Below, in pieces: positions 4,113-52,269 of a DNA stretch of 64,000 nucleotides (its first letter is position 1; every line of letters begins with the position of its first letter). Location: contig CM055895.1 in the NCBI GenBank assembly GCA_029582155.1, positions 60,613,078 to 60,677,077 on the forward strand. Reading direction: 5' to 3'. The stretch is from Panopea generosa (Eukaryota > Mollusca > Bivalvia > Adapedonta > Hiatellidae). The notes below the pieces were generated by a model, which worked only from the letters and a program-made list of their open reading frames with translations, was not told the DNA's origin and ran no database searches. A program made the position numbers and the translations under genes.

Positions 4113-4400
4113 GATTACGACGTCACATATAAATATATTTTCTATTGACCGCTGCAAAAAATACATATTCACATTGGGAATTTCTTCTAGTTTCATAATA
4201 TACTAATTGAACCACTGATTTAGAAAATAATTAAACCTTAATCAACTGCCGAAAATTTTATGGAAAACGCGTAGAATTATGCAATATGTTGATGTCTTTT
4301 TTGACGTAGGGTGGGGTTAAATAATTAAAAATAAAAAAAAAATCTAGTTTGTCAATTGTTCTAAAAATCTCACAATCACTGTGAAGCATATTGTTAGAAA

Positions 4401-4685: not shown

Positions 4686-4827
4686 GTTTACGACGTCATA
4701 GGTAAAGAAGTGTTATATTTACTGCAGAAAAAAAAGCATATTCAAATTGGAAATTACTTCTAGTTTCATTACATACCAAATATTCCACTGATTTCGAAAA
4801 TAATTTAAAAGGTATATTCCTCCTTAA

Positions 4828-19995: not shown

Positions 19996-21654
19996 ACATC
20001 TAAGACGGTGTAGAAAATCCCATAAAAATTCTAACCTTTATATAGAATATATATACCCACGATATGTATTTTGCAATATGATCTGTTGAATAGTCTCCCT
20101 TGTAAATCAATGATAATTATTCGACTGACAAGGACTGACACTTTAAAGTCATTGTATAAAGGTTATAGATTTGATATCAGGTTCGATGAAGACTACACTT
20201 ATTGGGACATCTTTAATAATGTATGCACAAAAAGTAATATATAATGCGTAAAAAACACGACCCCAAACACTTTTTTTAAAAAAAACAAACAAAAAACATT
20301 CCTAAGTATGTGTATGCATAACATATGATACATGGCGTTCATTATACAGAGTGACTTACAGAATAGTCTCCCTTGAATTTTATATTAAAGCTGTATAATT
20401 TGTATAATCTATCAGTGTTGAATTCTCTGTAGCAGCCTTTGTCATCAGAATAATTACCAAATGGTAGCAATATAAGTAGAAGCATCAGCAACAGAAGCAA
20501 TCATGCCTTTAACCACAATAACTTTATAGCACCGCTAGATTTACATTCACAGCCTTGTCAATAACAAATACATTAAAAATAATATGATTGGAGCTTTTTA
20601 TGCCTCAGGGGTGTCCGATCAGGTAATACGAAATAACTTGTTACCGCAACTGAGACACCTTAAAATTGTCTTCCACATAAACAGTTAGATTGGCGCCACG
20701 TGTGTGATAATGAAAAATGATGTCGCCCTGGTGTTTTTCAAGTTTTGTCATCTATAAAAATATAGCAATTAACCCATTAAAAACTACCCACAGCACATCT
20801 ACAGCCGACACCCACATATACCCACATATATACGTATAATAACGTCGCAAACTACAAAGACCACACTGCATGTGTCAGCCAAGGTAAACCATAAATGAAC
20901 AAGGATAGGTTAGACAGATACGTTTATTTCGGATATGGATGCATGTATTGACAATTAAAATAACATGCACAGTAAATAGAATTATTACATACATGAGGCA
21001 TAGTGAGCCATGACATGCACAGCACCACCAAGGATAACACAAAAAAAGAGTAATCTCTTATTTCCATTGTCGCCCTTTGTGTTGTGTTAGCATGGCATAC
21101 TGATGCAAATCAATCAATCAAAAACTATAATTATCATAGAAATTAATTGCACTATTAACTAATTAAGAATCAAGTAGACTATCAATTGCAATATCAGTAT
21201 TAAGTTGATTAAATATATCATTTCATATGTAACTTGTACAGTTAAAATTAATTTACCAAAGACTTTGTGATGCATTTTAACTTTAACGAATGCATTAGCA
21301 TCTGTTATTATTATTATATCAAGTAGTTTAGCAACAAAATAAAAAGCAGTTTCGATAAAAGTAATTTAGAATTTTAAGCTCATTACCGAACGTATTTAAA
21401 ACTGGTTAAAAAGGTAATATTTGGTAAAAATAAATTTAATAGTTTTGATTAAATATAAACGACAAACATGTTGGAAAAAATGCATACAGCCTCAGCCACC
21501 CAATTATATAGCTGTGAAATAAACTTCAGCCTATGTATGTGTTACCATAATCAACATTTGGTTCGTTATAAAAGAAATAGATTATTAAAACTGACAGTCT
21601 ATACTGAAAAATATCTTTCAAAATGCATTTATATGGGAAAAAACCCAAAGAATG
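19996..21654. other. Unassigned unique sequence
   Basis: AT-rich with no supported gene. The 64-codon ORF at 21468-21662 has no recognisable features. Confidence 0.5.
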
Positions 21655-21990
21655 TGCTTTAAATTATGCTAAGTTATCGAGCAAATGAGACTTAATAGCA
21701 GCCTTAAAACAAGGAAGTTTCTCAATTTGAGTGATATTGGCAGGTAAACTGTTCAACAAAATACATCCTCTGTAGCAGAAGGACTAAATCCTGTATTCAT
21801 AGGGACAGCACAAACACCTTGTGACATAAACAAGGTGACATAAACAAGATGTTTGCTTGCAAAGAATGCATTTAGACGATTGAAAGAAAATAGGGCATAA
21901 CGCCGTTCTCAAACAAGTACAGGTTATTAATGGCATCTAGTTTTATTGGTAAAGAAAGATCCCAGATCGTAATTACATTTCGAACCTTTT
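21655..21990 (-). mobile_element. LINE C-terminal/3' remnant
   Basis: The minus strand at 21664-21775 reads FCYRGCILLNSLPANITQIE then KLPCFKAAIKSHLLDN and stops. This is the YRG...NSLP...I...FK..LK.HL signature found at the extreme C-terminus of many CR1/Jockey-like ORF2 proteins. Upstream sequence to about 21990 is consistent with the preceding region but contains stops. Only the tail is present. Confidence 0.65.
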
Positions 21991-22760
21991 CATATATAGG
22001 CTTTTGACTAATATTGTTTTTCAAATGTTAGGTTCGATAAAAAATCAATATTAAATATGATAAGTTCATAACGTATATAATCATAAAACACGACATTTGA
22101 GATTGCGAGTCAATGATGTTATATTTAATTTTATAAATCGTGCGAATACCTTCTTATCACCAAATACTTGATTTTGGAATGCCGCAGTTATCAAAGATAT
22201 AAGGCAAAATGACAATTTGAAATAAATTTAGACAATTTATATTAGTGAAATGTACTTTCGTTTCTATATTTAATATAGCTGAATAATTGTCTTCTATTGT
22301 CTTTTTTTAAAAACCGTTATTCAAAACTATTTGAATGTATTGTTATAATAAAGTAATGAACCTTTTATATAAACTTAGATTTTGAAATCTGAAAGAGTGT
22401 TTTACTTTGATTAACATAGTATTTTTCTTGCATAACTATCATTGTTAAACCCTTTATTCTGTTTAAAATGAGCAAAACTACACTATAATGAAGTAATAAA
22501 TTGGATAAACTTGAAACCAGGTTACCTTAATACAAAATTAACCGAACATTGGTCCAATGCTCCAGGCATTCGTTATCTAATGACAATATTGAGAAAGGTA
22601 CGCGACATCTAATAAAATATACCAAAAATATAGTTTGAATTCATCAGAAGTAATTGAGTTCTACCAAATTAATCAAAAATGCATTATTATTATATGTGCT
22701 ATTGACTTACAGTTACAATGCCATGTTTCAGTAACATAAATATCATTAACGCTGTTAATA
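21991..22760. other. Unassigned AT-rich region
   Basis: No gene, RNA or repeat supported. It directly precedes the 78-bp array. Confidence 0.5.
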
Positions 22761-22764
22761 TATC

Positions 22765-25700
22765 TAAACAATCATGAGTATACATATTTCCCTCTGTCAT
22801 ACCAATCATACATATTCAATACATTTATGAAAGTGAGATTGGAATTATACTATCATGAGTACACAAATTTATCCTTGGCATACCAAACATAAATAAATAC
22901 ATATATGATTGTAAGATTGGAATTATACTATAATGGGTACACATATTTACCTCTGGCAAACCAATCATACAAAAATTACATATGTAATAGTGAGATTGGA
23001 ATTATACTATCATGGTACATATATTTACCAATTGCATACCAATCACACATAAATACATATATGATAGTGAGATTGGAATTATACTATAATGGGTACACAT
23101 ATTTACCTTTGGCATACCAATCACACATAAATACATATATGATAGTGAGATTGGAATTATACTATATTTGGTACATATATTAACCTCTGGAATACCAATC
23201 ACACATAAAAACATATATGATAGTGAGATTGGAATTATACTATCATGGGTATGCATATTTACCTCTGATATACCAGTCACATATACATACATATATGATT
23301 GTGAGATTGGAATTATACTATAATGGGCACATATATTAACCTCTGGCATACTAATCATGCATATATACCTACGTGATGATTGTGAGATTGGAATTATACT
23401 ATAATGGGTACACAAATTTACCTCTTGCATACCAATCACACATAAATACATATATGATATTGAGATTGGAATTATACTATCATGAGTTCACATATGTACC
23501 TCTGGCATACCAATCACACATACATACATAATCATATGATAGTGAGAATGGAATTATACTATCATGAGTTCACATATATACCTCTGGCATACTAATCACA
23601 CATACATATATATCATCTGATAGTGAGATTGGAATTATACTACCATGAGTACACACATTCACCTCTGGCATACCAATCACACATACATACATAATCATAT
23701 GATAGTGAGAATGGAATTATACTATCATGAGTTCACATATATACCTCTGGCATACTAATCACACATACATATATAATCATATGATAGTGAGATTGGAATT
23801 ATACTATCATGAGTACACACATTCACCTCTGGCATACCAATCACACATACATACATAATCATATGATAGTGAGATTGGTATTATACTATCATGAGTTCAC
23901 ATATTTACTTCTGGCATACCAATCACACATAAATACATAATCATATGATTGTGAGATTCGTATTATACTATCATGAGTTCACATATTTACCTCTGGCATA
24001 CCAATCACACATAAATACATAATCATATGATTGTGAGATTGATATTATACTATCATGAGTTTACACATTTACCTTTGGCATACCAATCACACATAAATAC
24101 ATAATCATATGATTGTGAGATTGATATTATACTATCATGAGTTCACACATTTACCTTTGGCATACCAATTATACATAAATACATACATAATCATATGATA
24201 GTGAGATTGGAATTATACTATCATGAGTACACATATTTACCTCTGGTATACTTATCACACATACATACATAATCATATGATAGTGACAATGAAATTATAC
24301 TATCATGAATTCACATATTCACCTCTGGCATACTAATCACACATACATACATAATCATATGATAGTGACAATGAAATTATACTATCATGAATTCACATAT
24401 TCACCTCTGGCATACTAATCACACATACATACATAATCATATGATAGTGAGATTGGAATTATACTATCATGAGTACACACATTCACCTCTGGCATACCAA
24501 TCACACATACATATATAATCATATGATAGTGAGAATGGAATTATACTATCATGAGTACACATATTTACCTCTGGCATACTAATCACACATACATACATAA
24601 TTATATGATAGTGATATTGGAATTATACTATCATGAGTACACATATTTACCTGTGGCATACTAATCACACATAAATACATATCAGATAGTGACATTGGAA
24701 TGATAGAATCATTGGTACACATATTTACCTCTGGCATACCAAACATACATCAATACATATATGATTGTGAGATGAATTATACTATAATGGGTATACATAT
24801 TTACCTCTGACATACCAAACATACATCAATACATATATTATTGTGAGATGAATTATACTATAATGGGTACACGTATTTACCTCTGACATACCAATCATAC
24901 ATAAATATATAAATGATAGTGAGATTAGAATTAAGCTATCAGAGGTAAACATATTTACCTCTGGCTCACCAATCACACATGAATACGTACATGATAGTGA
25001 GATTGGAATGATACTATAAAGGGTACACACATTTACTTCTAGCATACCAATCACACATAAATACATATATGATAGTGAGATTGGAATTATGCTATCATGA
25101 GTACACACATGTACCTCTGGCATACTAATCATACGTTAATACATATATGATAGTGAGATTGGAATTATAATATAGTGGGTACTCATATTTACATCTGGCA
25201 TACCGATCTGACATCAATACATATATGATTGTGAGATTGGAATTATACTATAATGGGTACACACATTTACCTATGGCATACCAGTCATACATTAATACAT
25301 ACATGATTGTGACATTGAAATGATAGTATCATAGGTACACATATTTACCTCTGGCATACCAAACATACATCAATACATATATGATTGTGAGATTGGAATT
25401 ATATTATAATGGGTAAACATATTTACCTCCGACATACCAAACATACATAAAGACATATATGATTGTGAGATTGGAATTATACTATTATGGGTACACACAT
25501 TTACCTCTGGTAAACCAATCATACATAAATACATACATGATATTGAGATTGGAATGATACTATAATGGGTATACATATTTACTCCTTGCATCCCAAACAT
25601 ACATCAGTACATACATGATTGTGAGATTGGAATGATACTATAAAGTGTACACACATTTACCTCTAGCATACCAATCACACATAAATACATATATGAAAGT

Positions 25701-28700
25701 GAGAATGGAATTATACTTACACGAGTACACATATTTATCTCTGGCATACCAATCTCATATCAATACATAATCTTATGATAGTGAGATTGGAATTATACTA
25801 TCATGAGTACACATATTTATCACTGGCACACTAATCATACATAAATACATATATGATAGTGAGATTGGAATTATACTGTCATGAGTACACACATTTACCT
25901 CTTGCACACTAATCATACATAAATACATATATGATTATGAGATTGGAATTATACTATTATGGGAACACACATTTACCTCTGGTAAACCAATCATACATAA
26001 ATACATACATGATAGTGAGATTGGAATGATACTATAATGGGTATACATATTTACTCCTTGCATCCCAAACATATATCAATACATACATGATTGTGAGATT
26101 GGAATTATACTATAAAGGGCACACACATTTACCTCTAGCATACCAATCACACATTAATACATATATAATAGTGAGAATGGAATTATACTAACATGAGTAC
26201 ACACATTTACCTCTGGCACACTAATCATACATAAATACATATATGATTGTGAGATTGGAATTATACTATTATGGGTACACACATTTTCCTCTGGTAAACC
26301 AATCATACATAAATACATAATCATATGATAGTGAGATTGGAATTATACTACCATGAGTACACATATTCACCTCTGGCATACTAATCATACATAAATACAT
26401 ATATGATAGTGATATTGGAATTATACTGTCATGATAACACACATTTACCTCTGGCACACTAATCATACATAAATACATATATGATAGTGAGAATGGAATT
26501 ATACTATCATGAGTACACATATTTACCTCTGGCATACCAATCACACATAGATACATAATCATATGATAGTGAGATTGGAATTATACTATCATGAGTACAC
26601 AAATTTACCTCTGGCACACTTATCATACATAAATACATATATGATAGTGAGAATGGAATTATATTATAATGGGTAAACATATTTACCTCCGACATACCAA
26701 ACATACATAAAGACATATATGATTGTGAGATTGGAATTATACTATTATGGGTACACACATTTACCTCTGGTAAACCAATCATACATAAATACATACATGA
26801 TATTGAGATTGGAATGATACTATAATGGGTATACATATTTACTCCTTGCATCCCAAACATACATCAGTACATACATGATTGTGAGATTGGAATGATACTA
26901 TAAAGTGTACACACATTTACCTCTAGCATACCAATCACACATAAATACATATATGATAGTGAGAATGGAATTATACTTACATGAGTACACATATTTATCT
27001 CTGGCATACCAATCTCATATCAATACATAATCTTATGATAGTGAGATTGGAATTATACTATCATGAGTACACATATTTATCACTGGCACACTAATCATAC
27101 ATAAATACATATAAGATAGTGAGATTGGAATTATACTGTCATGAGTACACACATTTACCTCTGGCACACTAATCATACATAAATACATATATGATTGTGA
27201 GATTGGATTTATACTATTATGGGAACACACATTTACCTCTGGTAAACCAATCATACATAAATACATACATGATAGTGAGATTGGAATGATACTATAATGG
27301 GTATACATATTTACTCCTTGCATCCCAAACATACATCAATACATACATGATTGTGAGATTGGAATTATACTATAAAGGGTACACACATTTACCTCTAGCA
27401 TACCAATCACACATTAATACATATATGATAGTGAGAATGGAATTATACTAACATGATACACACATTTACCTATGGCACACTAATCATACATAAATACATA
27501 TATGATTGTGAGATTGGAATTATACTATTATGGGTACACACATTTACCTCTGGTAAACCAATCATACATAAATACATAATCATATGATAGTGAGATTGGA
27601 ATTATACTATCATGAGTACACATATTCACCTCTGGCATACTAATCATACATAAATACATATATGATAGTGATATTGGAATTATACTGTCATGATAACACA
27701 CATTTACCTCTGGCACACTAATCATACATAAATACATATATGATAGTGAAAATGGAATTATACTAACATGAGTACACATATTTACCTCTGGCATACCAAT
27801 CACACATAGATACATAATCATATGATAGTGAGATTGGAATTATACTATCATGAGTACACAAATTTACCTCTGGCACACTTATCATACATAAATACATATA
27901 TGATAGTGAGAATGGAATTATACTAACATGAGTACACATATTTACCTCTGGCATACCAATCTCACATCAATACATACATTAACATAAAATAGTGAGATTG
28001 GAATTATACTATCATGAGTACACATTTTACCACTGGCATAATAATCACACATACATACATAATCATATGATAGTGAGATTGGAATTATACTATCATGAGT
28101 ACACATATTTACCTCTGGCACACTAATCATACATAAATACATATATGATAGTGAGATTGGAATTAAACTGTCATGAGAACACACATTTACCTCTGGCATA
28201 CCAATCATATATAAATACATACATGATTGTGACATTGGAATGGTATTATCATTGGTACACATATTTACCTCTGGCATACAAAACATACATAAATACATAT
28301 ATGATTGTGAGATTGGAATTATGTTATAATGGGTACACATATTTACCTCTGACATACCAAACATACATCATTACATATATGACTGTGAGATTGGAATTAT
28401 ACTAACATGAATACATACATTCACCTCTGGCATACAAATCACACATACATACATAATCATATGATAGTGAGATTGGAATTATACTATCATGAGTACTCAT
28501 ATTTACCTCTGGCACACTTATCATACATAAATACATATATGATAGTGAGATTGGAATTATATTGTCATGAGTACACACATTTACCTCTGGCATACCAATC
28601 ATACATAAATACATACAAGATTGTGACACTGGAATGATAGTATCATTGGGACACATATTTACCTCTGGCATACCAAACATACATCAATACATATATGATT

Positions 28701-31700
28701 GTGAGATTGGAATTATACTATAATAGGTACACATATTTACCTCTGACATACCAAACATACATCAATACATATATGATTGTGAGATTGGAATTATACTATA
28801 ATGGGTACACATATTTATCTCTGACAAACCAAATATACATCAATACATATATGATTGTGAGATTGGAATTATACTATTATGGATACACACAGTTACCTCT
28901 AGCTTACTTATCGTCAATAAATATATATATGATAGTGAGATTGGAATTATACTATCGTGAGTAGACACATTTACCTCTGGCATACTTATCATACATCAAT
29001 ACATATATGATAGTGAGATTGGAATCATACTATCATGGGTATACATATTTAACTCTGGCATACCAATCACACATTAATACATATATGATAGTGAAATTGG
29101 AATTATACTATCATGCGTATACATATTTACCTCAGGTAAACCAGTCACACCTACATACATATAACTATGATAGTGACATTGGAATTATAATATAATGGGT
29201 ACACATATTTACCTCTGGCATACCAAACATACATCAATAAATATATGATAGTGAGATTGGAATTATACTATTATGAGCACACAAATTTACCTCTGGCATA
29301 CTAATCATACATAAACACATATATGATAGTGAGATTGGAATGATACTGTCATAAGTACACACATTAACCTCTGGTATACAAATCATACATACATATACAT
29401 ATAATAGTGAGATTGGAATTATACTGTCATGAGTACACATATTTACCTCTGGCATACCAATCACACATGAATACGTACATGATAGTGTGATTGGAATGAT
29501 ACTCTAAAGGGTACACACATTAACTTCTAGCATACCAATCACACATAAATACATATATGATAGTGAGATTGGAATTATGCTTTCATGAGTACACACATGT
29601 ACCTCTGGCATACCAATCATACATTAATACATATATGATAGTGAGATTGGAATTATAATATAGTGGGTACACATATTTACATCTGGCATACCAATCTCAC
29701 ATCAATACATATATGATTGTGAGATTGGAATTATACTATAATGGGTACACACATTTACCTCTGGCATACTAATCATACATTAATACATACAACATTGTGA
29801 CATTGGAATGATAGTATCATAGGTATATATATTTACCTCTGGCATACCAAACATACATCAATACATATATGATTGTGATATTGGAATTATACTATAATGT
29901 GTACACATATTTACCTCTGAAATACCAAACATACATAAATACATATATGATTGTGAGCTTGGAATATACTATTATGGGTACACACATTTACCTCTGGTAT
30001 ACCAATCATACATAAATACATACATGATAGTGAGATTGGAATGATACTATAATGGGTATACATATTTACTCCTGGAATCCCAAACATACATCAATACATA
30101 TATGATTGTGAGATTGGAATTATACTATAAATGGTACACACATTTACCTCTAGCATACCAATCTCACATAAATACATATATGACATTGAGATTGGAATTA
30201 TGCTATCATGAGTACACACATGTACCACTGGCATACCATTCATACATCAATACATATATGATAGTGAGATTGGAATTATAATATAATGGGTACACATATT
30301 TACATCTGTCATGCCAATCTCACATAAATACATATATGATTGTGAGATTGGAATTATACTATCATGAGTATACAAACTTACCTGTGGCTTACCAATTATA
30401 CATCAATACATATATGATTTTTAGATTGGAATTATACTATTATGGGTACACACATTTACCTCTGGCATACTTATCATCAATAAAAATATATATGGTAGTG
30501 AGATTGGAATTATACTATCGTGAGTAGACACATTTACCCCTGGCATACTAATCATACATAAATACATATTTGATAGTGATATTGGAATTATACTATCATG
30601 GGTACACATATTTACCTCTGGCATACTAATCATCAATACATACATGATTGTGACATTAGAATTAAACTATATTGGGTACACATATTTACCTCTGGCATAC
30701 ACAACATACATCAATACATATACGATTGTGAGATTGGAATGATACTATAATGGTAACACACATTTACCTCTGGCGTCTAATTATACATAAGTATATATAT
30801 GAAAGTGAGATTCGAATTATACTGTCAAGGCTACATATATTTACCTCTGGCATACCAATCACACATCAATACAAATATGACTGTGAGATTTGAATTATAT
30901 TATAATGGGTACACACATTTCCCTCAGGCATAGCTTTCATACATAAATACATACATGATAGTGAGATTGGAATTATACTGTCATGAATACACACATTTAA
31001 CTCTGTCATACTTATCACACATAAATACATTGATGATAGTGAAACTGGAATTATTCTAACGTGGGTACACACATTTACCTCTGGCATACTAATAATACAT
31101 TAAGACATACATGATTGTGAGATTGGAATTAACTATCATGAGTACACACATTTATCTTTGGCATACCAATCATACATAAATACATACATGATTGTGAGAT
31201 TGGAATTATACTATAATGGGTACACACTTTACCTCTGGCATACCAATCATACATTAATACATACATGATTGTGAGATTGGAATTATAGTATCATGGGTAT
31301 ATATGTTAACCAGTGGCATACCAATCACACATAGATACATATATGATAGTTAGATTGGACTTATACTATCATGGGTACATATATTAACCTGTGGCATACC
31401 AATCACACATACAAACATATATGAAAGTGAGATTGGAATTATACTATAATGGGTACATACATTTACCTTTGGAATACCAATCTTACATAAATACATACAT
31501 GATAGTGAGATTGGAATTATACTATCATGGATACTTATATTAACAAGTGGCATACCAATCACACAAAGATACATATATGATAGTGAAATTGGAATTATAC
31601 TATAATGGGTACACATATTTACCTCTGGCATACTAATCATACATCAATACATACGTAATTTTGAGATTGGAATTATAATATAATGGGTACACATATTTAC

Positions 31701-32330
31701 TTCTGACATACCAATCACACATAAATATATATGTTGCAGTGATATTGGAATTATACTATCATGAGTACATACATTGACCTGTGGCATACCAATCACACAT
31801 AGATACATATATGATAGTGAGATTGAAATTATACTATCATGAGTACACATATTTACCTCTGGCAAACCAAACATTATCAATACATATATGATAGTGAGAT
31901 TGGAATTGTACTATAATGGGTACACACATTTACCTCTGGCATACCAATCACAAATGAATACGTACATGATAGTGAGATTGAAATTATACTATAATGGGTA
32001 CACATATTTACCTCTGGCATCCCAAACATACACAAATACATACATGATTGTGAGATTGGAATTATAATATAATGGGTACACATATTTACCTATGGCATAC
32101 CAATCACATTTAAATACTAATGTGATAGTGATATTGGAAGTATAATATTATAGGTACACATATTAACCTCTGGTATACCAGTCTTACATAAATACATATA
32201 TGATAGTGAGATTGGAATTATACTATCATGGGTACACATATTTACCTCTGGCATACCAATCACACATAACTACATATATGATCCTGAGACAGGAATTATA
32301 CTATTACGGGTACACATATTTACCTCCGGC
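22765..32330 (-). repeat. 78-bp minisatellite array C (about 120 units), intron 5 of TenA-like copy 1
   Basis: The period is 78 bp (checked at 22951, 23029, 23107 and 23185). Read on the minus strand, the gene's sense strand, a unit contains ATGCCAGAGGTAAATATGTG followed by GTACCCATGATAGTATAATT and CCAATCTCACTATCATATATG. The first part matches the exon 5/intron 5 junction at 32311-32336 (GCCGGAG|GTAAATATGTGTA) almost base for base, so the array grows out of the splice junction. A ~1.26-kb block is duplicated in tandem (about 25400-26660 and 26661-27920). Units at 23460-24660 more often carry an extra ATAATCATATGA segment. The ORFs in it are repeat translations. Confidence 0.95.
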
Positions 32331-32426
32331 ATACCATTCATCCACCATCTTGTCAAGCTCTTCATATCCGACATACTTAGGGTCAAAGTTATCACTGACC
32401 CACTTAGTGTACATGCCGAAGTTGTG
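32324..32426 (-). CDS. TenA-like copy 1, exon 5
   Basis: 103 nt, starting in phase 0 after ...TTAACAG and ending G|GTAAATATG (phase 1). It encodes HNFGMYTKWVSDNFDPKYVG and YEELDKMVDEWYAG, matching the NPYxxWIxxYxxxEF segment of TenA proteins. The 3' end of this exon is the seed of the adjacent 78-bp minisatellite. Confidence 0.85.
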
Positions 32427-35400
32427 CTGTTAATTTAAGATCATGGCAAATTTAACAAATGTCATTAAACCTTTCAAAATTATATTGTCGCTTGGTACAC
32501 AGTTAGAGAACATTAAATGTCATTGCTCATATATTCATGCTGCATAAGATACATCAACCACCCCCGATAAATTTTCTCTGGAATCTATAACCATGAGATT
32601 GAATAAATAATTAATTAATATAAAACCTAAAAGAAATTGGTTCCTTTTTTAAAAAATTACAATACTATTAAAAGTCAAAACTAACCTCTTCTTCAAGCAA
32701 TTCCTTACCGATCCATGGCCATAACTTGAGGCAGGGAATCATGGCTACAATTGTATAAATGGGTTCCATAGTTTTAGCCACACCGAACTTGTAATCTGTG
32801 TAAGCTTGACACCCACTACCAAGTTTCACACAAGACGAATTAGTCAAGTGCCATTCCTTGTACATGCCAATGGCATAACTGTAATAAAGTTTTGATATAC
32901 GCATTAACATTTCATAGGTATTACAATAAATCATACCGGTTGCATTTCCTGTGTTATTAAGTCATTGACCTACCATCATCGTCGAATACCCAAGGGGTAT
33001 CAATTCCACTACTCTCCATTCATCACCCGTGTGAAATAACGCTAGCACTGCGTCGTTTTATTTGAACAGAACAATACACGATACAGCTAACGTTAACAAC
33101 TAGCGTTACGATTGGATAACGTTCCCTTCAAAAAAGCTCGAAGTAGCCAATCATATGTTTGCATTGTGGCTTGGTAGAAACGACGCAAAGCTAGTGCAAT
33201 GTTCCACGGGTGATGAATGGAGAGTATCGGAATTGATTACACGTGAGTATCCGGCGCTGCCATACCATACGAGTCATCAGAAGTAAATGAGTTACAAAAA
33301 TAGTGTTACCTAATATAATAAACATGCTTTTCTATTCTGCAATAAAAGTCAAACCAAAATGTTTGCTCCACGAGCATTCTGTAAACAATTCTAAACTAGT
33401 GTAAGAAAAGTAAATTGTTTTGCTACATGACATTTTGGTAATAAACCAAAAAAACAAAGAAGAACGGTATTAAATTCTTATCTCCCGCTCAAAAGGGCCA
33501 TGGACTGAGCAAAACAGGTATTGCCTGTGGATGTGGGTACTGAAAAAGCGGCTTATAACCAGAAGAGCAGAATTAAAGTGTGACAGTGTGCACGATTGTG
33601 GAAAGTATCCGCTATTGCCAGAAGACAGTTTCTTTATAGATTTTACAATTTCATCATTTGATATTACTTCGTTTGATAAAGAGTTTTCATAAAGGTTATT
33701 ATTTACTGAGTAAGTATGCAAATCAGTATTTACGGCGTTTTTGCCGTATAGGAGCAGTTTCAAATAGTTTCACTATTCAATAGCACGTATTAAGCTATCG
33801 GAATTAGCAGCTCTGCGATTCTTTGAAGCAATGTCATCATAGGTTTTTCATAGCATCAATCAAATTATGTCGGTTTGTTTTCAGATACTTGCCTTAATTT
33901 GGATTACATTTACTTTTGATTTTGTTTTTATTAACTTTATATAACCTCAAGTCATGAAGTTATAAAAGGACTCTCGTTTACTTTAATACCACTTAAACTA
34001 ATTGCATTTTTTTAGACATTCGATATAAACACCAGTTGTGCGCCAGGTTCGTATACTATGTTATAACTGAAAAGGCATTTGACATAAAACAGGTGAGTGA
34101 ATCATCTTTGTCACCGATTTTAAAATCAGAAAAATATTGAAAAAAATCAGTCAATATTTCGAGCATATTCAGGTCATCACGAATCAAATATCTTACTCAA
34201 TACAGTATTGTTATGTCTAGCATGTTATAAACATTGTTACACGCTAGAAGGGTAAACAGCTCATTTTAATGAAATGATAAGAACTATTCTCCGCTGGACT
34301 TTGGAGATTTGACATAAACAGCTTACCCCATATATTTGATAGCTTGTCCAATAAGAAACTCTTTGTCTACGACTGCATCATTCATATCCACATTCTGTGA
34401 GGCAATCAATAATATGACCGATTGTTTTTCTAAGTAAACAGCATCCTGCACATTGTATGCCCCTGTAAATAAAGTGGGTTCTCTTTTATTTTATACAATA
34501 CAATTATTTAATACATTCCGTCTAAGAAATCACCCCAAAAGGGAGGTGCTGGTGGGTACAAAAAACATCCCTGACACGTGTTTCATATTGAATATCTAAC
34601 CATGTCATGATACATGTTATGTATTAACAAAGGCTCATTACACGTTTAATGACCAGGCAGGTTTGAACTCATGAACTCATAACATATTTTTACTTATTTG
34701 TAAAGGATAAAGATGCGATATTTTATTTCCTGCAATGGTATAGGAGAACATAAACATAAATTATATACAATTTGAAATGATAGAACATATACAATTGACA
34801 AATAATAGTATTAAATTATAAATACAACATGTACATGACGATATATAATAAAATAAAAAAAAAGAATGACATTTAACTCACAAAACCATAAAACTTTAAT
34901 ATACAAATAATATTATACGATAAGTAAGCATTTATTTCAGTAACGTCTGATACATAACAGTTACTTTAAACTAAAACGCACAATGACACATTTTTACATG
35001 CTGTCATTTTGTACTACAATAATGATTGTCACCACCTAATGATAATCATCATAATCCGTGACGTATTGTCCTATTGGCTACAACCACCAAAGCACCATAA
35101 ACATGATCAACGTACAAGAAATTAGAATGAGTAATACATATATACATACAGACAAAATGACAACTGGGGTAACCACCATGGAATCACCAAAGCAACAGAA
35201 ACATGATCAACATACAATAAAATAAAACAAGTAATACATACATACAGACATAATGACAACTTGGGTAACCACCATGGAACCACCAAAGCAACATAAACAT
35301 GATTAACATACAAGACATTAAAACAAGTAATACATGCAGACAGACGGAATGACAACTCGGGTAACCATCCTGGAAACACCAAAGCAACATAAACATGATC

Positions 35401-36744
35401 AATATTAAAAAAATTAGAACAAGTTATACATACATACAGACGGAATGACAACTGGGGTAACCACCTGGAAACACCAAAGCAACATAAACATGATCAAAAT
35501 ATAAGAAATTAAAACAAGAAATACATACAAAGAGACGGAATGACAGCTGGGGTAACCCCCCTTGAACCACCAAAGTAACATAAACATGATCAACATAAAA
35601 AAAATTAGAACAAGGAATACATACAGATAGACGGAATGACAACTTGGGGTGATCACCCTGGAAACACCAAAGCAACATCAACATGGTCAACATACAAGAA
35701 ATTAGAACAAGTAATACATACATACAGACGGAATAACAACTGGGATAACCACCCTGGAACCACCAAAGTTACATAAACATGATCAACAAACAAGAAATTA
35801 GAAAAGTAATACATACATACAGATAGACGGAATAACAACGACAACGACAACGACGATAACGACAACGACGACGACGACGACGGCGACGACAACAACACCA
35901 CCACCACAGGATATACAACATATTATAACTTTAGTTTTATTTGAATTTCTGGAATCATCTGCTATTCAAATACATTTTTCTCTGTTTGGAAGAGTCCATA
36001 TTGTCTCCATTGAAGTATTGCAATATATGATATGGGTATGTTTAATTTACTGACTGGTTTTCTGTTATCAGATTTCGAAGTGATTTTATGAATAAAGATA
36101 TGATCAATGTAAATTAATATAATACAAACCAAACTTAGTCGGAAGAAGTGTTCCATCCTTTAGACCTTGTATGAAAGGAGTGTCAAGCGCCTTCTCGGCT
36201 ATTTCTAATGAATCAGCCCACAACCGCTGAGAAAGTGTTGTGTCTTCTTGTACATTGATATTTGCTGTGTACTTTATAGGATCAGCTACAGCATCGCTGT
36301 CTATATCGTTGTAGCTATACTCTACTACTACCGGTTCGCCAACAGTACCTATGTGAATTGTAATAAATTAGATAGTTTGGTCTGGCCGAATTGTATTTTA
36401 TTTTAATGTTAGTGATGGGAATGCACACAATGTGATATTGATACAGATGACAATACAATTATAAATCTTGACCCAATTCAGACTTGAAATTAAAACATTA
36501 AATTTAACTAAAAAAGTTAAAACATTTTTTTTTGCAAACTTATAAAATACTTGAACTAAATGCAGTAACATTTCAAATACTTGTTCCATTGATGTTATTA
36601 TTGTCAGCACAACTTGACAATATTTTTAAATTGTTCTCTTGCAAACGAGCTCATATCCAATTGTTAAGGAACGCACTTACCTGTAAGAATGACAGCCAAA
36701 CCAATCCATTGTCCTAATGTTAAAAACATCACTGTTTTATTCAT
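32324..36744 (-). CDS. Secreted TenA/thiaminase-II-like protein, copy 1 (exons 1-5; last exon not found)
   Basis: A five-exon model on the minus strand: 36744-36681, 36348-36130, 34462-34327, 32878-32686 and 32426-32324, with consistent phases (1, 2 then 1 nt split codons) and no internal stop. Residues 1-22 form a signal peptide (MNKTVMFLTLGQWIGLAVIL). A TenA-family core follows: LWADSLEIAEKALDTPFIQG, LKDGTLLPTKF, YNVQDAVYLEK, YTIVAMIPCLKLWPWIG and YTKWVSDNFDPKYVGY. The Asp and Tyr of QDAVYL and the Cys of MIPC sit where TenA enzymes have the active-site Asp, Tyr and nucleophilic Cys. TenA proteins cleave thiamin or aminopyrimidine breakdown products; the substrate here is unknown. A signal peptide is unusual for TenA, so an extracellular or secretory role is inferred. 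With a sixth exon like copy 2, the protein would be 266 aa. Confidence 0.85.
32686..32878 (-). CDS. TenA-like copy 1, exon 4 (catalytic Cys)
   Basis: 193 nt. Acceptor TTTATTACAG|TTATGCC, donor GAAGAG|GTTAGT. It encodes YAIGMYKEWHLTN...QAYTDYKFGVAK...AMIPCLKLWPWIGKELLEEE. The Cys in MIPC corresponds to the TenA catalytic cysteine. The last 12-13 nt of coding sequence differ completely from copy 2, although the rest differs only at three silent sites. Confidence 0.88.
32977..33268. mobile_element. MITE-like element with ~75-bp terminal inverted repeats (intron 3, copy 1)
   Basis: The left end (TATCAATTCCACTACTCTCC, ATTCATCACCCGTG, GCGTCGTTT) is matched in reverse complement by the right end (ATGAATGGAGAGTATCGGAA, TTGATTAC). 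Imperfect TIRs run from about 32977 to 33055 and 33180 to 33262. A possible 6-bp target duplication TACCAT lies at 32971-32976 and 33263-33268. No transposase is encoded. The same insertion is in copy 2, so it predates the duplication. Confidence 0.75.
33470..33840 (-). mobile_element. LINE fragment in intron 3 (copy 1)
   Basis: The minus strand reads SNDEIVKSIKKLSSGNSG then GYFPQS, like the segment just before the RT palm (..EI..AIKKLK.GKS.G.D...FP..W), with internal deletion. The 97-codon ORF at 33470-33763 is this remnant, not a gene. Duplicated in copy 2. Confidence 0.6.
34327..34462 (-). CDS. TenA-like copy 1, exon 3
   Basis: 136 nt. Acceptor TTATTTACAG, donor ATGGG|GTAAGC. It encodes AYNVQDAVYLEKQSVILLIA then SQNVDMNDAVVDKEFLIGQA and IKYMG. 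QDxxYL is the TenA helix bearing the active-site Asp and Tyr. Compared with copy 2 there are five substitutions, all amino-acid changing. Confidence 0.88.
35083..35830. repeat. ~96-bp tandem repeat in intron 2 (copy 1), about 8 units
   Basis: The unit contains CACCAAAGCAACATAAACAT, GATCAACATACAAGAAATTAG and ACAGACGGAATGACAACTGG. Starts near 35083, 35170, 35278, 35375, 35470, 35568, 35664 and 35758. Minus-strand ORFs here are repeat translations. Confidence 0.92.
35836..35909. repeat. (ACG/ACA)n trinucleotide repeat in intron 2 (copy 1)
   Basis: Interrupted ACAACGACAACGACG repeats grading into CACCACCACCAC. Confidence 0.95.
36130..36348 (-). CDS. TenA-like copy 1, exon 2
   Basis: 219 nt. Acceptor TTCACATAG|GTACTG, donor TTTG|GTTTGT (a weak but GT donor). 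It encodes an N-terminal extension rich in Asp, Val and Tyr (VGEPVVVEYSYNDIDSDAVA) and then TenA helix 1 (LWADSLEIAEKALDTPFIQG, LKDGTLLPTKF). The extension, about 40 residues between the signal peptide and the TenA fold, has no recognised domain. Confidence 0.87.
36681..36744 (-). CDS. TenA-like copy 1, exon 1 (signal peptide)
   Basis: 64 nt from ATG to ACAG|GTAAGT, a strong donor. It encodes a short basic N-terminus and a hydrophobic core (VMFLTLGQWIGLAVIL), i.e. a signal peptide. Start chosen because it is the only ATG in phase with exon 2 and it lies 60-70 bp downstream of a TATA box. Identical in copy 2. Confidence 0.85.
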
Positions 36745-36805
36745 TGTTGTGATAAAGTCCAGGTGTGACGCTATTTTGTTATTTATATTGATGCAGTATG
36801 CTTGC

Positions 36806-36813
36806 CTTTTATA
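36806..36813 (-). promoter_or_regulatory. TATA box of TenA-like copy 1
   Basis: TATAAAAG on the minus strand, ~62 bp upstream of the ATG, so transcription would begin about 30 nt later. Conserved in copy 2. Confidence 0.7.
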
Positions 36814-37401
36814 CTAATGTCTGGCTCTGAAACAGACATCAAGAAAACTGGACAAATTGCAAACTCGTAACCTTATTTTCGATTATTTGATTCAATTAGT
36901 TATACTGTTTTCGCAGCAATGTGTTTCCCCGGATGATGTCACTCCGTTCGATCTTTGTGCTTGGACACATCACTAACCGATTTTGGTTAGTGATAATAGC
37001 GAGGAGTAGGTAGAATGCATGGACTATTTTAATAGTTATATGCTCATAAATGGTCTCTTATTTCACATTTCCTTGAAGTCTATGTTAATAAAGTTCACAT
37101 ATTAAATATTTTGAATAAAGATATATATTCCTAAATAGTATATAGTTCATGAATTTAAAAAAAACAACAACAAATAAACTTCACTCCGAACCATTTTCGT
37201 ATTGGAAATATTGTATATCATGACAATCAAATTTTCTGCAAGAGACGGCGCAATCTCTTGGATTCACCAAACTAATTAAAATAGAACAAATTTAGTGTTT
37301 TTGAATTCTGTTTCGGAGGAGAAAGACTTCATTGCGGTACTTCTGACGTGTTGCGAGAAAATTTCAAAATAAAATAGTTCTAATGAAAACGTCGTTAATG
37401 A

Positions 37402-47652: not shown

Positions 47653-47738
47653 CTAATTCATGGCGCGGTCGAAGAAAAGATATTCTCCATTCATACAGTT
47701 CCGGTATACTTCCTTTGCTATCTCCTCTGTAATCAAAC
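47653..47738 (-). CDS. TenA-like copy 2, exon 6 (C-terminus)
   Basis: 86 nt after acceptor TTATTTCTGTAG, starting in the phase demanded by exon 5 (G|GT). It encodes 27 residues and TAG. EVYRNCMNGEYLFFDRA fits the final TenA helix. No equivalent was found for copy 1. The poly(A) site is not identified. Confidence 0.78.
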
Positions 47739-47739: not shown

Positions 47740-49118
47740 TACAGAAATAAAATTACCAGAATAAAATTATATATTCATACATTTTCAGATTAAACGTTCG
47801 ATAAGTGATTTAAATATATTTTGAATAATCAAAATATAAATATGTTGTTTGCTTTCAAATACTAATTTATACGAGAAATAACTAATGAGGCTTAATGTCA
47901 TTCACATGACCTTACGTAAGATCAGACGTACATGTACATGTTGGCATAAATCTGAGTAGAACCGCCGTCTTTCCCCATTAAAATGAAAACCATTCTATTT
48001 TTGTATAAGCTTTCAAATATACTGAAAACTAAGTCCAGTCAGTAAAAATACATGCGAAATCCCATAGGGTACATTTAAAGCCGAATGTGTGCCTGAATAA
48101 GGCAGTGGTATTTTGAAGAAGCAATCTGAAATTGAATTTAGGTTTGTAAAAAAAAAAATCGATGGTTAAATAAAGTATACCAACTTTCATTCTGGTGATA
48201 TCCGTCGTCCTATATCGTTCTTATTTCAATGTAAAGGGAGATAGTGTACCGATTACTTAACTTTCAAGATGGAATGCGTGTACAGTTTTACATTCTTTGA
48301 TGTAAGCTCCGCCAATTTACGCAGTTTCAGTTGTTTAACTAGGCAAATAGTGCTTTTATTTTACAAAATGCTGTTTTACATAAAGAAGCAATAACCTTCA
48401 GCTAGACTTTAGTTTATCTACATACTTCGACAAGTATAGAAATATCGAATTCTTATTTTGTATTATTGTTAAACTTGCATGAAAACACCGACTAAACGTT
48501 TGGATCTGAGTATATTTCTGTTTTTATCGAACGTGTATGCCCACTGGAAAATCCATATCAAACATGTATGCTGCATATGATTACATATATTATACATCAA
48601 GCTAAATAGAAGAAATGTAAACATTGAAGTCCGTTACATTAAACTCAGTTTTATTTATAAAGCAGGAGCGAATACCTGTCACTAAAACATAACTTAACAC
48701 AGAAACTTGAGTTTAGATTTTGCAGTCAGTACTTCATGATACATGATAAGGCAACGACAATTTGAAATAAAAAGAAATATTAGTAAATTGTCATGACTTT
48801 TCATATATGTGTATTACACCGGGAATTGAATAATGCCAACGATTAAACCGATAACTATAAGATGAACTTACGTAATTACATGTACATTCGTACATACATA
48901 TAATATAAACGAATTAATCATGACATCTATCCCCTTTTTATTTAAAAACTGTAATTAAAAACATTTTGATTGTATAACATTAATGAAGTGTACCTATACC
49001 ATACATATTTTAAAACATTAAAAAGTGATTGCCGATAATATACATAGTCTTACGATCGAAAGTACATCATTATGTTATTTGCTATTGATTTGTAATTGCT
49101 ATGCCATATTTCATTACA
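47740..49118. other. Intron 5 of copy 2, unique part
   Basis: AT-rich sequence between exon 6 and the 57-bp array. No other feature recognised. Confidence 0.5.
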
Positions 49119-49119
49119 G

Positions 49120-52100
49120 TTGTTTAGCGTACATACGCGATATAAATAGCTGATTGTATCTATACTATCATTAAAGTTGTCTGGCGTATATACGCGACAT
49201 AAATAGCCAACTATATCTTTACTATAATTAACGTTGTCTGGCCTATATAAGCGACATAAATAGCTGACTATATCTATGCTATCATTAAAGTTGTCTGGCG
49301 TATATACGCGACATAAATAGCCGACTATATCTTTACTATAATTAACGTTGTCTGGCGTATATAAGCGACATAAATAGCTGACTATATCTTTGCTATCATT
49401 AAATTTGTCTGGCGTACATATGCGACATAAATAGCTGATTATATCTAAACTATCATTAATGTTGTCTGGCGTACATACGCGACATAAATAGCCGACTATA
49501 TCTTTGTTATCATTAAATTTGTCTGGCTTACATATGCGACATAAATAGCTGATTATATCTTTAATATCACTTTAGTTGTCTGACGTTCATACGCGACATA
49601 TATAGCCGACTATATCTATACTATCATTAACGTTGTCTGGCGTACATAAGCGACATAAATAGCCGACTATATTTATACTATCATTAAATTTGTCTGGCGT
49701 ACATGTGCGACATAAATAACTGATTATGTCTATAACATCATTAACGTTGTCTAGTGTACATACGGGACATAAATAACTGATTATATCTATACTATCATTA
49801 ACGTTGTCTGGCGTACATAAGCGACATAAATAGCCGACTATATTTATACTATCATTAAATTTGTCTGGCGTACATATGCGACATAAATAACTGATTATGT
49901 CTATAACATCATTAACGTTGTCTAGTGTACATACGCGACATAAATAACTGATTATATCTATACTATCATTAAAGTTGTCTGGTGTGCATACGCGACATAA
50001 ATAGCCGACTATATCTATACTATAATTAAATTTGTCTGGCGTACATATGCGACATAAATAGCTGATTATATCTATATTATCAGTAAAGTTGTCTGGCGTA
50101 CTTTCGCGACATAAATAGCCGAATATATCTATACTATAATTAACGTTGTCTGGCGTTCATAAGCGACATAAATAGCCGACTTTATTTATACTATCATTAA
50201 ATATGTCTGGCGTACATATGCGACATAAATAGCTGATTATATCTATACTATCATTTGCGTTGTCTGGTGTACATACGCGACATACATAGCCGACTTTATC
50301 TATACTATCATTAACGTTGTCTGACGGACCCACGCGACATAAATACTAGACTATATCTATAATATCATTAACGTTGTCTGGCGTGCCTACGTGGCAAAAA
50401 TAGCCGACTATATATTTATATCTATACTATCATTAAAGTTGGCTGGCGGTTATACCCAACTTAAATACTAGACTATATCTATACTATCATTAAAATTGTC
50501 TGGCGTACGTACGCGGCTCAAATACTCGACTTTATCTATTCTATAATCAACGTTGTCTGGCGGACCTACGGGACATATAGAATAGCCGACTATGTCAATA
50601 CTACCATGAACGTTGTCTGGCGGACCTACGGGACATATAGAATGGTCGACTATGTCTATACTATCATGAACGTTGTCTGACGTACCTACGGGACATATAA
50701 AATAGCCGACTATGTCTATACTATCATGAACGTTGTCTGGCGGACCTACGTAGCATAAATACTAGACTATGTCTTTACTATCATGAATGTTGTCTGGCGG
50801 ACCTACGCGACATAAATACAAGACTATGTCTATACTATCACGAATGTTATCTGGCGGACCTACGCAGCATAAATACTAGACCATGTCTATACTTTCACGA
50901 ACGTTGTCTGGCGGACCTACAAAGCATAAATACTATACTATGACTATACTATCATGGATGTTGTCTGGCGGACCTACGCAGCATAAATACTAGACTATGT
51001 CTATATTATCACGAACGTTGTCTGGCGGACCTACGCAACATAAATACTAGGCTATATCTCTACTATCATTAACGTTGTCTGACGGACCTACGCAGCATAA
51101 ATACTAGACTATGACTATACTATCATGAACGTTGTCTGACGGACCTACGCAGCATAAATACTAGACTATATTTCTACTATTATTAACGTTGTCTGACGGA
51201 CCTACGCAACATTAATACTAGACTATATTTCTACTATTATTAACGTTGTCTGACGGACCTACGCAGCATAAATACTATACTATATTTCTACTTTTATTAA
51301 CGTTGTCTGACGGACCTACGCGACATTAATACTAGACTATATCTCTACTATCATGAACGTTGTCTGGCGGACCTACGCGACATAAATACTAGACTATTTC
51401 TCTACTATCATTAATGTTGTCTGGCGGACCTACGCAGCATAAATACTAGACTATATTTCTACTATCATTAACGTTATCTGGCGGACCTAATCGACATAAA
51501 TACTAGACTATATCTCTACTATCATTAACGTTGTCTGACGGACCTACGCAGCATAAATACTAGACTATATCTCTACTATCTTTACGTTGTCTGACGGACC
51601 TACGCAGCATAAATACTAGACTATATCTTTAATATTATTAAAGTTGTCTGACGGACCTACGCGACATTAATACTAGACTATATCTCTACTATCATGAACG
51701 TTGTCTGGCGAACCTACGCGACATAAATACTAGACTATTTCTATACTTTCATTAATGTTGTCTGGCGGACCTACGCAGCATAAATACTAAACTATATCTC
51801 TACTATTATTAACGTTGTCTGGCGGACCTACGCGACATTAATACTAGACTATATCTCTACTATCATTAACGTTGTCTGACGAACCTACGCAGCATAAATA
51901 CTAGACTGTATCTCCACTATCATTAACGTTGTTTGACGAACCTACGCGACATTAATACTAGACTATATATCTTCTATCATGAACGTTGTATGGTGGACCT
52001 ACGCGACATAAATACTAGACTATTTCTATACTATCATTAATGTTTTCTGGCGGACTTACGCGACATAAATACTGGACTATATCTCTATTATCATTAACGT

Positions 52101-52155
52101 TGTCTGACGGACCTACGCAGCATAAATACTAGACTATATATTTACTGTTATGAAT
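49120..52155 (-). repeat. 57-bp minisatellite array D (about 53 units), intron 5 of copy 2
   Basis: Units repeat every 57 bp (landmark CTGGCG at 49181 and 49295, CTGGCC at 49238). Two subfamilies: to about 50330 the unit has GTTGTCTGGCGTACATACGC plus GACATAAATAGCCGACTAT; from about 50550 it has GTTGTCTGACGGACCTACGC plus AGCATAAATACTAGACTAT, with a mixed zone between. The array ends about 12-25 bp from the exon 5 donor. The unit is unrelated to array C in copy 1. Confidence 0.95.
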
Positions 52156-52167: not shown

Positions 52168-52269
52168 CTTTGGCATAATATGTATCTACAATCTCATCGA
52201 ATTTTCATATCCGACATAATTAGGGTCAAAGTTCTCTTCGACCCACGATGTGTACACACCTGAGTTATG
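52168..52269 (-). pseudogene. TenA-like copy 2, exon 5 (frameshifted)
   Basis: Acceptor AATTGACAG|CATAAC, donor AAAG|GTAAATATT. It reads HNSGVYTSWVEENFDPNYVG and then loses frame by one missing base, reaching TAG. Restoring phase in the analysis gives a tail similar to the copy 1 tail. Many differences from copy 1 show this part was not homogenised. Confidence 0.8.

What the first reader, a model, noticed from the sequence alone, without database searches (positions are those of the whole stretch)
22765..32426. Minisatellite built from a gene's own exon-intron junction: about a hundred decoy 5' splice sites in one intron
Read on the minus strand, exon 5 of TenA-like copy 1 ends ATGCCGGAG|GTAAATATGTG. 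Each well-preserved 78-bp unit of the adjacent 9.5-kb array contains ATGCCAGAG|GTAAATATGTG, followed by the same continuation (GTACCC, then GATAGTATAATTCC). A match of ~28 bases spanning the exon end and donor is not chance, so the array expanded from a tandem copy that included the exon's last ~13 nt. The transcript would carry ~100 copies of its own donor with exon-like flank. That could titrate U1 snRNP, produce spliced variants with extra 78-nt pieces (78 is a multiple of 3), or slow splicing. This is a proposal, not shown.
Basis: partly seen in the sequence, partly recalled or inferred. Interest (0 to 1): 0.9.

Follow-up and report, generated by a model that had tools for sequence, protein, structure and literature searches.

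The report
Minisatellite of repeated splice donors
Next to the last recognisable exon of one TenA-like gene copy, the exon's end and its splice signal have been copied about 120 times in a row together with the tip of a dispersed repeat; it looks like a neutral accident in a gene copy that has lost its final exon, but with its five sister genes it makes a natural test of how much a gene suffers from decoy splice sites.

Summary
On the minus strand a 9.6-kb array of 122 units (78 bp) starts inside exon 5 of TenA-like copy 1 and repeats the exon's last 13 nt plus its 5' splice site: 62 of 122 units keep the exact 9-mer GAG|GTAAAT, 111 of 122 keep GT.

The interpretation needs revision. (1) The unit is a chimera: columns 38-70 are the tip of a high-copy dispersed repeat. 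(2) The gene has at least five sister copies; all five have a 57-60-bp array at the same place, without a single GGTAAAT. (3) Copy 1 alone has no detectable exon 6, so the array is not shown to be an intron. (4) Read-through of the real donor meets a stop after six codons, so 78 being a multiple of 3 is irrelevant. (5) Donor columns vary like the rest of the unit.

Best reading: neutral re-amplification of a donor-bearing unit in a truncated paralog. A human precedent exists (IFI6/6-16 minisatellite, Turri 1995; title and a citing passage seen). No RNA evidence was available.

The parts
36681..36744 (-). TenA-like copy 1, exon 1 (ATG, hydrophobic N-terminus)
   Evidence: 64 of 64 nt identical in sister copies 0, 2 and 3; donor GTAAGT
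36130..36348 (-). copy 1, exon 2
34327..34462 (-). copy 1, exon 3
32686..32878 (-). copy 1, exon 4
32324..32426 (-). copy 1, exon 5; its last 13 nt (32336-32324) are the start of repeat unit 1
   Evidence: acceptor ACAG and donor GTAAATAT at the same places in five sister copies
32318..32326 (-). real 5' splice site GAG|GTAAAT
32301..32306 (-). in-frame stops TAA TAG met if the real donor is read through or any later donor is used
   Evidence: read-through ends ...EWYAGGKYVYP**
22765..32336 (-). 78-bp minisatellite, 122 units: exon tail + donor + intron start + tip of a dispersed repeat
32259..32336 (-). unit 1, overlapping exon 5
25440..27880 (-). recent block duplication inside the array: units 58-72 (27880-26700) repeated as units 74-88 (26621-25440), each pair at 95% identity or more
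   Evidence: lag 16, run of 15 units; unit coordinates
22735..22776 (-). distal edge: the last partial unit lacks the dispersed-repeat piece and runs into sequence like the sisters' 57-bp unit
   Evidence: 14 of 2000, 2 of 2000 and 179 of 2000 shuffles reach the score against the copy 2, P and copy 4 units; 649 of 2000 against the 78-mer (suggestive)
21812..22733 (-). downstream flank, colinear with copy 2 (49116-47812) up to about 75 nt before the place of exon 6
   Evidence: four blocks, 67-76% identity, best E 1e-16; reversed control one block at E 0.02
49111..52146 (-). copy 2: 57-bp array at the homologous place; no GGTAAAT in it
52168..52269 (-). copy 2, exon 5 (102 nt against 103 in the other five, frame broken)
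47653..47738 (-). copy 2, exon 6, the exon not found for copy 1

Best explanation
It is a neutral minisatellite born at an exon-intron junction. SHOWN: a TenA-like gene family of at least six copies carries a tandem array that starts in, or a few bases past, the end of exon 5. In five copies the unit is 57-60 bp and the arrays hold no GGTAAAT. In copy 1 the unit is 78 bp: 13 nt of exon tail, 24 nt of intron beginning with the donor, about 33 nt that equal the tip of a high-copy dispersed repeat, then 8 nt. Copy 1 has no detectable exon 6, and its donor columns vary like the rest of the unit. INFERRED: an array existed before the copies split; in copy 1's lineage a dispersed element landed in the donor-bearing first unit, most of it was deleted (a shared TATTTA fits a microhomology deletion), and slippage or unequal exchange amplified this chimeric unit about 120-fold, replacing the older units, of which the distal edge looks like a relic. 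Because copy 1 is truncated, the decoy donors are tolerated and drift. If copy 1 is transcribed, they would at most act as passive U1 sites or weak cryptic donors leading to the same truncated product.
For: Array and donor counts. The junction motif occurs once in each of five sister loci, and the unit's ATGCCAGAG equals the exon end of copies 4 and P while copy 1's own exon has GGAG, so exon to array is the direction. Copy 2 junction and first intron bases against the 78-mer: 0 of 500 shuffles reach the score. 78-mer against copy P's first unit: 0 of 500. Dispersed-repeat piece: of 159 matches of the 78-mer (40 of 280 candidates scored) 150 were listed, 120 in the array and 30 elsewhere; all 30 lie within cols 21-75, and 12 are identical over exactly cols 38-70. 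In the 11 of 12 fetched loci tested the family begins sharply there: median pairwise identity 0.35 upstream (maximum 0.92, one pair sharing its flank), 0.88 downstream. A 131-nt query: 1704 candidates, 40 scored, 40 matching. Exon 6: 5 hits, none for copy 1; targeted search with best 18.5 bits against 18.1 on the reversed sequence and 46.6-62.8 in the four positive-control loci. Neutrality: donor-window identity 0.926 against 0.899 elsewhere, rank 21 of 78; donor GT kept in 110 of 120 units, the six other GTs in 94-110 of 120; private variants per column 0.67 against 0.67. Block duplication typical of unequal exchange.
Against: That the 57-bp unit itself descends from the exon tail is not secure. 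For: 5 of 1000 shuffles, 16 of 2000 for P, 1 of 2000 for the copy 4 junction against the copy 2 unit, consensus 5.3 bits against 0 of 60 shuffles in a profile search. Against: two unrelated arrays of the window reach 32.5 and 31 where the 57-mer reaches 36; in the profile search copy 2's array (8.7 bits) is passed by two unrelated arrays (9.2 and 11.5) and nearly equalled by a third (8.4); exon tail plus donor alone gave 124 and 379 of 2000. The donor window is somewhat more conserved than the median window (exact 9-mer in 0.508 of units against 0.392, rank 19 of 70). Exons 1-5 of copy 1 are open with canonical splice sites, so the copy may not be dead; an unrecognisable or alternative last exon cannot be excluded. 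By the recalled matrix the P array has 6 other donor-like sites in 481 nt (all TAGGTACGC, 12.5 per kb), so 'donor-less' holds for this donor, not for every donor-like site.
Confidence: 0.77

Rival explanations
1. IFI6-like: copy 1 is expressed and several repeat units serve as alternative splice donors, giving transcripts with exon 5 extended by n x 78 nt.
For: Units carry exon flank plus donor, 62 of 122 identical to the real 9-mer. Repeat units are used as donors in human IFI6 (passage in PMC4526556). Exons 1-5 are open.
Against: A stop codon in unit 1 truncates every extended form at the same place. No partner exon 6 was detected. No RNA data.
Confidence: 0.1
2. The array is a functional U1 platform: about 75 strong donors bind U1 along 9.6 kb and slow splicing, retain the RNA on chromatin or protect it from premature polyadenylation.
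For: 77 donor-like sites at least as strong as the real one by the recalled matrix, 8.04 per kb against 1.28 per kb in other window sequence on that strand. No AATAAA or ATTAAA in the 9.6-kb array.
Against: The donor is not unusually conserved. Five sister arrays lack this donor. The absence of poly(A) signals reflects one repeated unit, so it is one observation. No exon 6 was detected.
Confidence: 0.06
3. The array is an unrelated satellite that landed beside exon 5, and the exon end was converted to the array sequence afterwards.
For: Unit 1 and the exon are almost continuous, and conversion between repeats is common in such arrays (general knowledge).
Against: Sister copies without the 78-mer have the same exon end and donor, once each. 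Outside this array no listed match of the 78-mer covers cols 1-20 (150 of 159 matches listed, 40 of 280 candidates scored; it did not list the short sister junctions either), whereas the dispersed-repeat piece is found in many places.
Confidence: 0.03
4. Assembly artefact: unit number or order is inflated or collapsed.
For: Long arrays are hard to assemble; units 58-72 and 74-88 are near-identical.
Against: Units differ by about 15% on average (adjacent-unit identity 0.849), which lets long reads place them; the downstream flank is colinear with a sister copy. The sequencing method of this assembly is not known to me.
Confidence: 0.04

Closest known systems
Human IFI6 (6-16, G1P3) splice-donor minisatellite, Turri, Cuin and Porter 1995, NAR 23:1854 (title seen in reference lists; text not held; passage on its use in PMC4526556)
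   Same: Tandem units at an exon-intron boundary, supplying splice donors.
   Different: In IFI6, by the passage seen, two downstream repeat units are used as donors and give isoforms; its 12-bp unit and about 26 copies are recalled, not seen. Here the unit is 78 bp, there are 122, a dispersed-repeat tip is included, read-through stops at once, no partner exon was detected and use is unknown.
Variable internal tandem repeats at exon-intron boundaries of segmental-duplication paralogs, De Grassi and Ciccarelli 2009 (PMC2812944; outline and sections 6 and 9 read)
   Same: Minisatellites at exon-intron boundaries that differ between recent paralogs and alter gene structure.
   Different: The human cases average 30-bp units, 4 repeats, 160 bp, and nearly all have RNA support; here 9.6 kb and no RNA.
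[quoted passage not shown] 2010, PMC2891723, passages read; Zhuo et al. 2007 known only from a citation hit and recall)
   Same: Tandem copying of an AG|GT-containing stretch.
   Different: Here the donor of an intron shared by the whole family was copied; no new intron is shown.
Minisatellites derived from transposable elements (review PMC9659126, passages read)
   Same: A piece of a dispersed repeat became part of a tandem unit.
   Different: Here less than half of the unit is dispersed-repeat sequence; the rest is exon and intron.
Intronic minisatellite-length repeats in tandem earthworm metallothionein genes (PMC12783039, passages read)
   Same: Tandem gene copies with similar exons but diverged intron repeats.
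   Different: No copied splice donor is described in the passages seen.

Membership tests
Minisatellite | Head-to-tail units of about 15-100 bp at one locus | tested here: met
   78 bp, 122 units; listed full-length matches only at this locus (150 of 159 matches listed)
Splice-donor minisatellite of the IFI6 type | Array begins at an exon-intron boundary and units carry exon tail plus donor | tested here: met
   13 nt of exon tail plus donor; 62 of 122 exact 9-mer, 111 of 122 keep GT
Splice-donor minisatellite of the IFI6 type | More than one unit is used as donor in mature mRNA | not testable with these tools
   No RNA data. No partner exon 6 was detected
Splice-donor minisatellite of the IFI6 type | Extended isoforms keep an open reading frame | tested here: not met
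   TAA TAG within unit 1 in the exon's frame. That the frame stays open in IFI6 is inferred from the isoforms named
Intron gain by tandem proto-splice duplication | A new intron absent from paralogs | tested here: not met
   The exon 5 donor is present in all six copies
Tandem repeat derived in part from a dispersed element | Unit contains a piece of a dispersed family with a defined end | tested here: met
   cols 38-70; sharp family boundary in the 11 loci tested; 40 of 40 scored candidates match. The class of the element was not determined
TenA/THI-4 family (PF03070), host gene | Pfam score above the gathering cut-off | tested here: met
   Sister copies 3 and 0 (266 aa each): 41.1 and 35 bits, cut-off 22; best solved relative BT3146, 2a2m, E 2.4e-23 with copy 3. 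A 172-aa hybrid fragment scored 18.6, below cut-off; copy 1 exons 3-5 read into the intron matched no family at E 0.001

The most novel reading that the evidence does not exclude
Decoy donors are a selective load that shapes minisatellites. In the five copies that have exon 6 the array unit is free of this donor; only in the copy without exon 6 did the donor-bearing unit expand, either because selection was gone or because the decoys themselves ended splicing to exon 6 and so led to its loss. The six paralogs would then be a natural experiment on how many decoy 5' splice sites an intron can bear.
Probability: 0.18. Interest if true: 0.7.

Novelty: new variant of a known kind. Interest (0 to 1): 0.42.

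Why it matters
The one earlier case of a minisatellite that supplies splice donors that I met in the searches is a human gene, IFI6. Here the same kind of event is seen on a large scale, its parts can be traced (exon tail, intron start, tip of a dispersed repeat), and five sister genes carry arrays free of this donor at the same place. That makes two questions testable: where junction minisatellites come from, and whether many decoy donors harm splicing. The comparison rests on one independent contrast, because the donor-free unit may be a single ancestral state.

Tried and rejected
In-frame 78-nt isoforms: rejected, since a stop lies in unit 1.

Exon 6 of copy 1: sought in the window, in the genome and in the 37,942 nt between the copy 1 array and copy 0's exon 1. 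Protein queries: best 18.5 bits (E 0.35) against 18.1 bits (E 0.49) on the reversed sequence; DNA queries: best E 0.058 on both. The positive control found exon 6 in 4 of 4 sister loci with all four queries (E 1.6e-11 or better).

Homology of the 57-bp and 78-bp units: left as suggestive. For: 5 of 1000 shuffles, 16 of 2000 and 1 of 2000, 0 of 60 shuffled consensus arrays. Against: other arrays of the window score nearly as high or higher (32.5 and 31 against 36; 11.5 and 9.2 against 8.7 bits), 58 of 500 for copy 2's second-unit zone, 124 and 379 of 2000 for exon tail plus donor alone.

Relic of the 57-bp unit at the distal edge: 30 of 500, then 14, 2 and 179 of 2000 with a shorter query against three sister units. 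The query was shortened after the first result, so this is suggestive only. The last unit with its flank as a whole scores higher against the 78-mer (63.5) than against the first units of copies 4 and 2 (58 and 47; 0 of 1000 shuffles each).

Recursive splicing or acceptors inside units: considered from the sequence (AG|GT in the unit, about half pyrimidines upstream), not tested.

Rows dropped: the pre-array row before all counts; unit 1 and the partial last unit for column statistics (120 of 122 used); L076 from the boundary test (11 of 12 used), because it lacks the anchor motif. In the joined CDS copies 4 and P do not translate openly, because my exon ends for them may be wrong; no claim is made on their intactness.

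Papers that seemed close by their terms: PMC12783039 and PMC3549977 (passages) describe no copied splice donor in what I saw. The listings were seen as listings only, apart from the papers cited.
Full report
WHAT WAS CLAIMED.

On the minus strand exon 5 of copy 1 ends GCCGGAG|GTAAAT (32324/32323). A wraparound alignment splits 32336-22765 into 122 units; the first begins 13 nt inside the exon and the last is partial. TRF gives period 78, 121.5 copies, 83% matches. The donor 9-mer GAGGTAAAT is exact in 62 of 122 units and GT is kept in 111 of 122; the longer 20-mer with exon flank is exact in 16 of 122. Across the 1.47-Gb genome (39 contigs; window at C2:60613078-60677077) the exact 20-mer pattern has 17 hits, all here, and 0 for the pattern read backwards. 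GAGGTAAAT does not occur in the 39,923 nt of the window outside arrays on either strand. By a weight matrix recalled from memory 73 of 122 units are at least as strong as the real donor, and the array has 8.04 such sites per kb against 1.28 per kb elsewhere on that strand; other sequence of this length would therefore hold about 12.

THE GENE. The host gene is a TenA/THI-4 family member: sister copies 3 and 0 read open for 266 codons and score 41.1 and 35 bits against PF03070 (cut-off 22); the best solved relative is BT3146 (2a2m, E 2.4e-23). A genome search with a hybrid protein gave 38 matches from 41 candidates, all on C2, which I sort into six copies: P on the plus strand, and copies 0, 1, 2, 3 and 4 on the minus strand. 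Copies 1 and 2 lie in the window. Their 5' 5 kb (32584-37647 and 52751-57792) are 96.7% identical while exon 5 is about 75% identical, so the pair is a mosaic. Copy 2 has a stop in exon 2 and a 1-nt frame break in exon 5.

COPY 1 HAS NO DETECTABLE EXON 6. Exon 6 is found in the five other copies but not for copy 1. Downstream of its array copy 1 stays colinear with copy 2 down to 21812 (copy 2: 47812), about 75 nt before copy 2's exon 6, and then no match is found (four blocks, best E 1e-16; the reversed control gave one block at E 0.02). A targeted search of the 37,942 nt between the copy 1 array and copy 0 gave at best 18.5 bits, against 18.1 on the reversed sequence and 46.6-62.8 for exon 6 in 4 of 4 sister loci. 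So the array follows the last recognisable exon of a truncated copy; that it is an intron is not shown. What follows the break reads like the tail of a retrotransposon ORF to my eye (recalled pattern, not tested; the search did not complete).

THE READING FRAME. From exon 5 through the donor the frame reads G-G-K-Y-V-Y-P-stop-stop. Any use of a later unit as donor gives the same truncated protein, so it does not matter that 78 is a multiple of 3.

THE UNIT IS A CHIMERA. Of 159 matches of the 78-mer in the genome (40 of 280 candidates scored) 150 were listed: 120 lie in this array and 30 elsewhere. All 30 fall within cols 21-75, and 12 are identical over exactly cols 38-70. In the 11 of 12 fetched loci that I tested, the dispersed family starts abruptly at this place: median pairwise identity is 0.35 in the 60 nt before (maximum 0.92, where two loci share their flank) and 0.88 in the 60 nt after. 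A 131-nt query gave 1704 first-look candidates, 40 scored, 40 matching. Thus cols 38-70 are the tip of a high-copy dispersed repeat, and cols 1-37 are exon tail, donor and intron start. The class of the element was not determined.

THE SISTER ARRAYS. All five other copies have a tandem array starting at or just after the exon 5 donor: by TRF 57 bp in copies 0, 2 and 4 and 60 bp in P, and in copy 3 by matches to the 57-bp unit. GGTAAAT occurs 0 times in each of the five arrays and 71 times in copy 1's (counted past the real donor). Sites at least as strong as the real donor by the recalled matrix are 0.33-0.92 per kb in copies 0, 2, 3 and 4, but 12.5 per kb in P, where all 6 are TAGGTACGC, a different motif. 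The junction motif TATGCCNNAGGTAAATAT occurs exactly once in each sister locus. The junctions of copies 4 and P read TGGTATGCCAGAG|GTAAATATTTA.GTTCACAATAGTATAGATAAAGTCGG, which resembles copy 1's unit before the dispersed piece, and in its later half the 57-bp unit: copy 4 junction against its own unit 0 of 2000 shuffles, P 16 of 2000, 78-mer against P's first unit 0 of 500. That the 57-bp unit also includes a decayed exon tail is only suggestive (124 and 379 of 2000 for that part alone; other arrays score as well in the profile test). The unit's ATGCCAGAG equals the exon end of copies 4 and P, whereas copy 1's own exon has GGAG; in this base the decoys are closer to those sister donors than copy 1's real junction is.

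HOW IT AROSE (INFERRED). The simplest course is: an old array at the exon 5 junction before the copies split; in copy 1's lineage, insertion of a dispersed element into the donor-bearing first unit and loss of most of it, perhaps through the shared TATTTA; then amplification of the chimeric unit to about 120 copies. The distal edge of the array lacks the dispersed piece and resembles the 57-bp unit (14, 2 and 179 of 2000 shuffles against three sister units, 649 of 2000 against the 78-mer), which fits replacement of an older array. Exon 5 distances (copy 1 to copies 4 and P: 17 and 18 nt; to copies 0 and 3: 28 and 26 nt) would place copy 1 inside the family by midpoint; no tree was built. A 15-unit block is duplicated at a lag of 16 units, a mark of unequal exchange.

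NO CLEAR SIGN OF SELECTION ON THE DONORS. Donor columns: mean identity 0.926 against 0.899 for the rest, rank 21 of 78 windows; GT kept in 110 of 120 against 94-110 of 120 for the six other GTs of the unit. Exact donor 9-mer in 0.508 of units against a median of 0.392, rank 19 of 70; private variants per column 0.67 in both classes. The donors are a little better kept than the average column but within the range of the rest; they are not purged.

WHAT IS KNOWN. [quoted passage not shown] text not held). [quoted passage not shown] Boundary minisatellites that differ between paralogs are described by De Grassi and Ciccarelli (PMC2812944, sections 6 and 9), tandem duplication of proto-splice sites by Lehmann et al. 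(PMC2891723, passages), and element-derived minisatellites in PMC9659126 (passages). In the library searches I met no other case of a copied splice donor; the two papers listed were looked at in passages. That library holds open-licence papers only.

VERDICT. A real and large splice-donor minisatellite with a traceable chimeric unit, most likely neutral, in a truncated gene copy. It is a new variant of a known kind. Its best use is as a comparison set: one donor-rich array and five arrays without this donor at the same exon of sister genes.

Noticed in passing
32584-37647 and 52751-57792: 5 kb with exons 1-4 is 96.7% identical between copies 1 and 2, while exon 5 and the flank past the arrays are 67-76% identical: recent homogenisation of the 5' part of an older pair.
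   Followed up: partly
exon 3 of copies 0, 1 and 3 (copy 1: 34327-34462): All differing codons between these copies are nonsynonymous (5, 6 and 5 of 44 codons in the three pairs, 0 synonymous): relaxed or diversifying evolution of a TenA-like gene with a hydrophobic N-terminus.
   Followed up: no
35082-35896 and 55251-56059: 96-bp tandem repeat followed by an (ACAACG)n-type microsatellite in the same intron of both copies (also 7823-8486 of L059); the layout recalls Pearl/CvA-like bivalve elements (recalled).
   Followed up: no
13235-16833: 63-bp array (three 21-bp parts) with minus-strand stop-to-stop frames of 983 and 756 codons in the style AVVTCHSAVVTCHSADVAFHS; likely only a by-product of a stop-free 21-bp period.
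   Followed up: no
2548-3401 and 3973-4827: Long inverted repeat, 95% identical over 857 nt, with inner repeats of about 80%.
   Followed up: no
61760-63961 minus: 734-codon stop-to-stop frame that looks like a BEL/Pao-type polyprotein fragment (recalled pattern).
   Followed up: no
about 21560-21812 minus: Where copy 1 stops being colinear with copy 2, just before the place of exon 6, a short frame SLPANITQIEKLPCFKAAIKSHLLDNLA-stop resembles the tail of a non-LTR retrotransposon ORF (recalled; search not answered); it may mark the event that removed exon 6.
   Followed up: partly
8650-12923: 52-bp array of two 26-bp halves, 82 copies, about 4.3 kb; the window holds about eight sizeable tandem arrays in all, so array growth is common here.
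   Followed up: no
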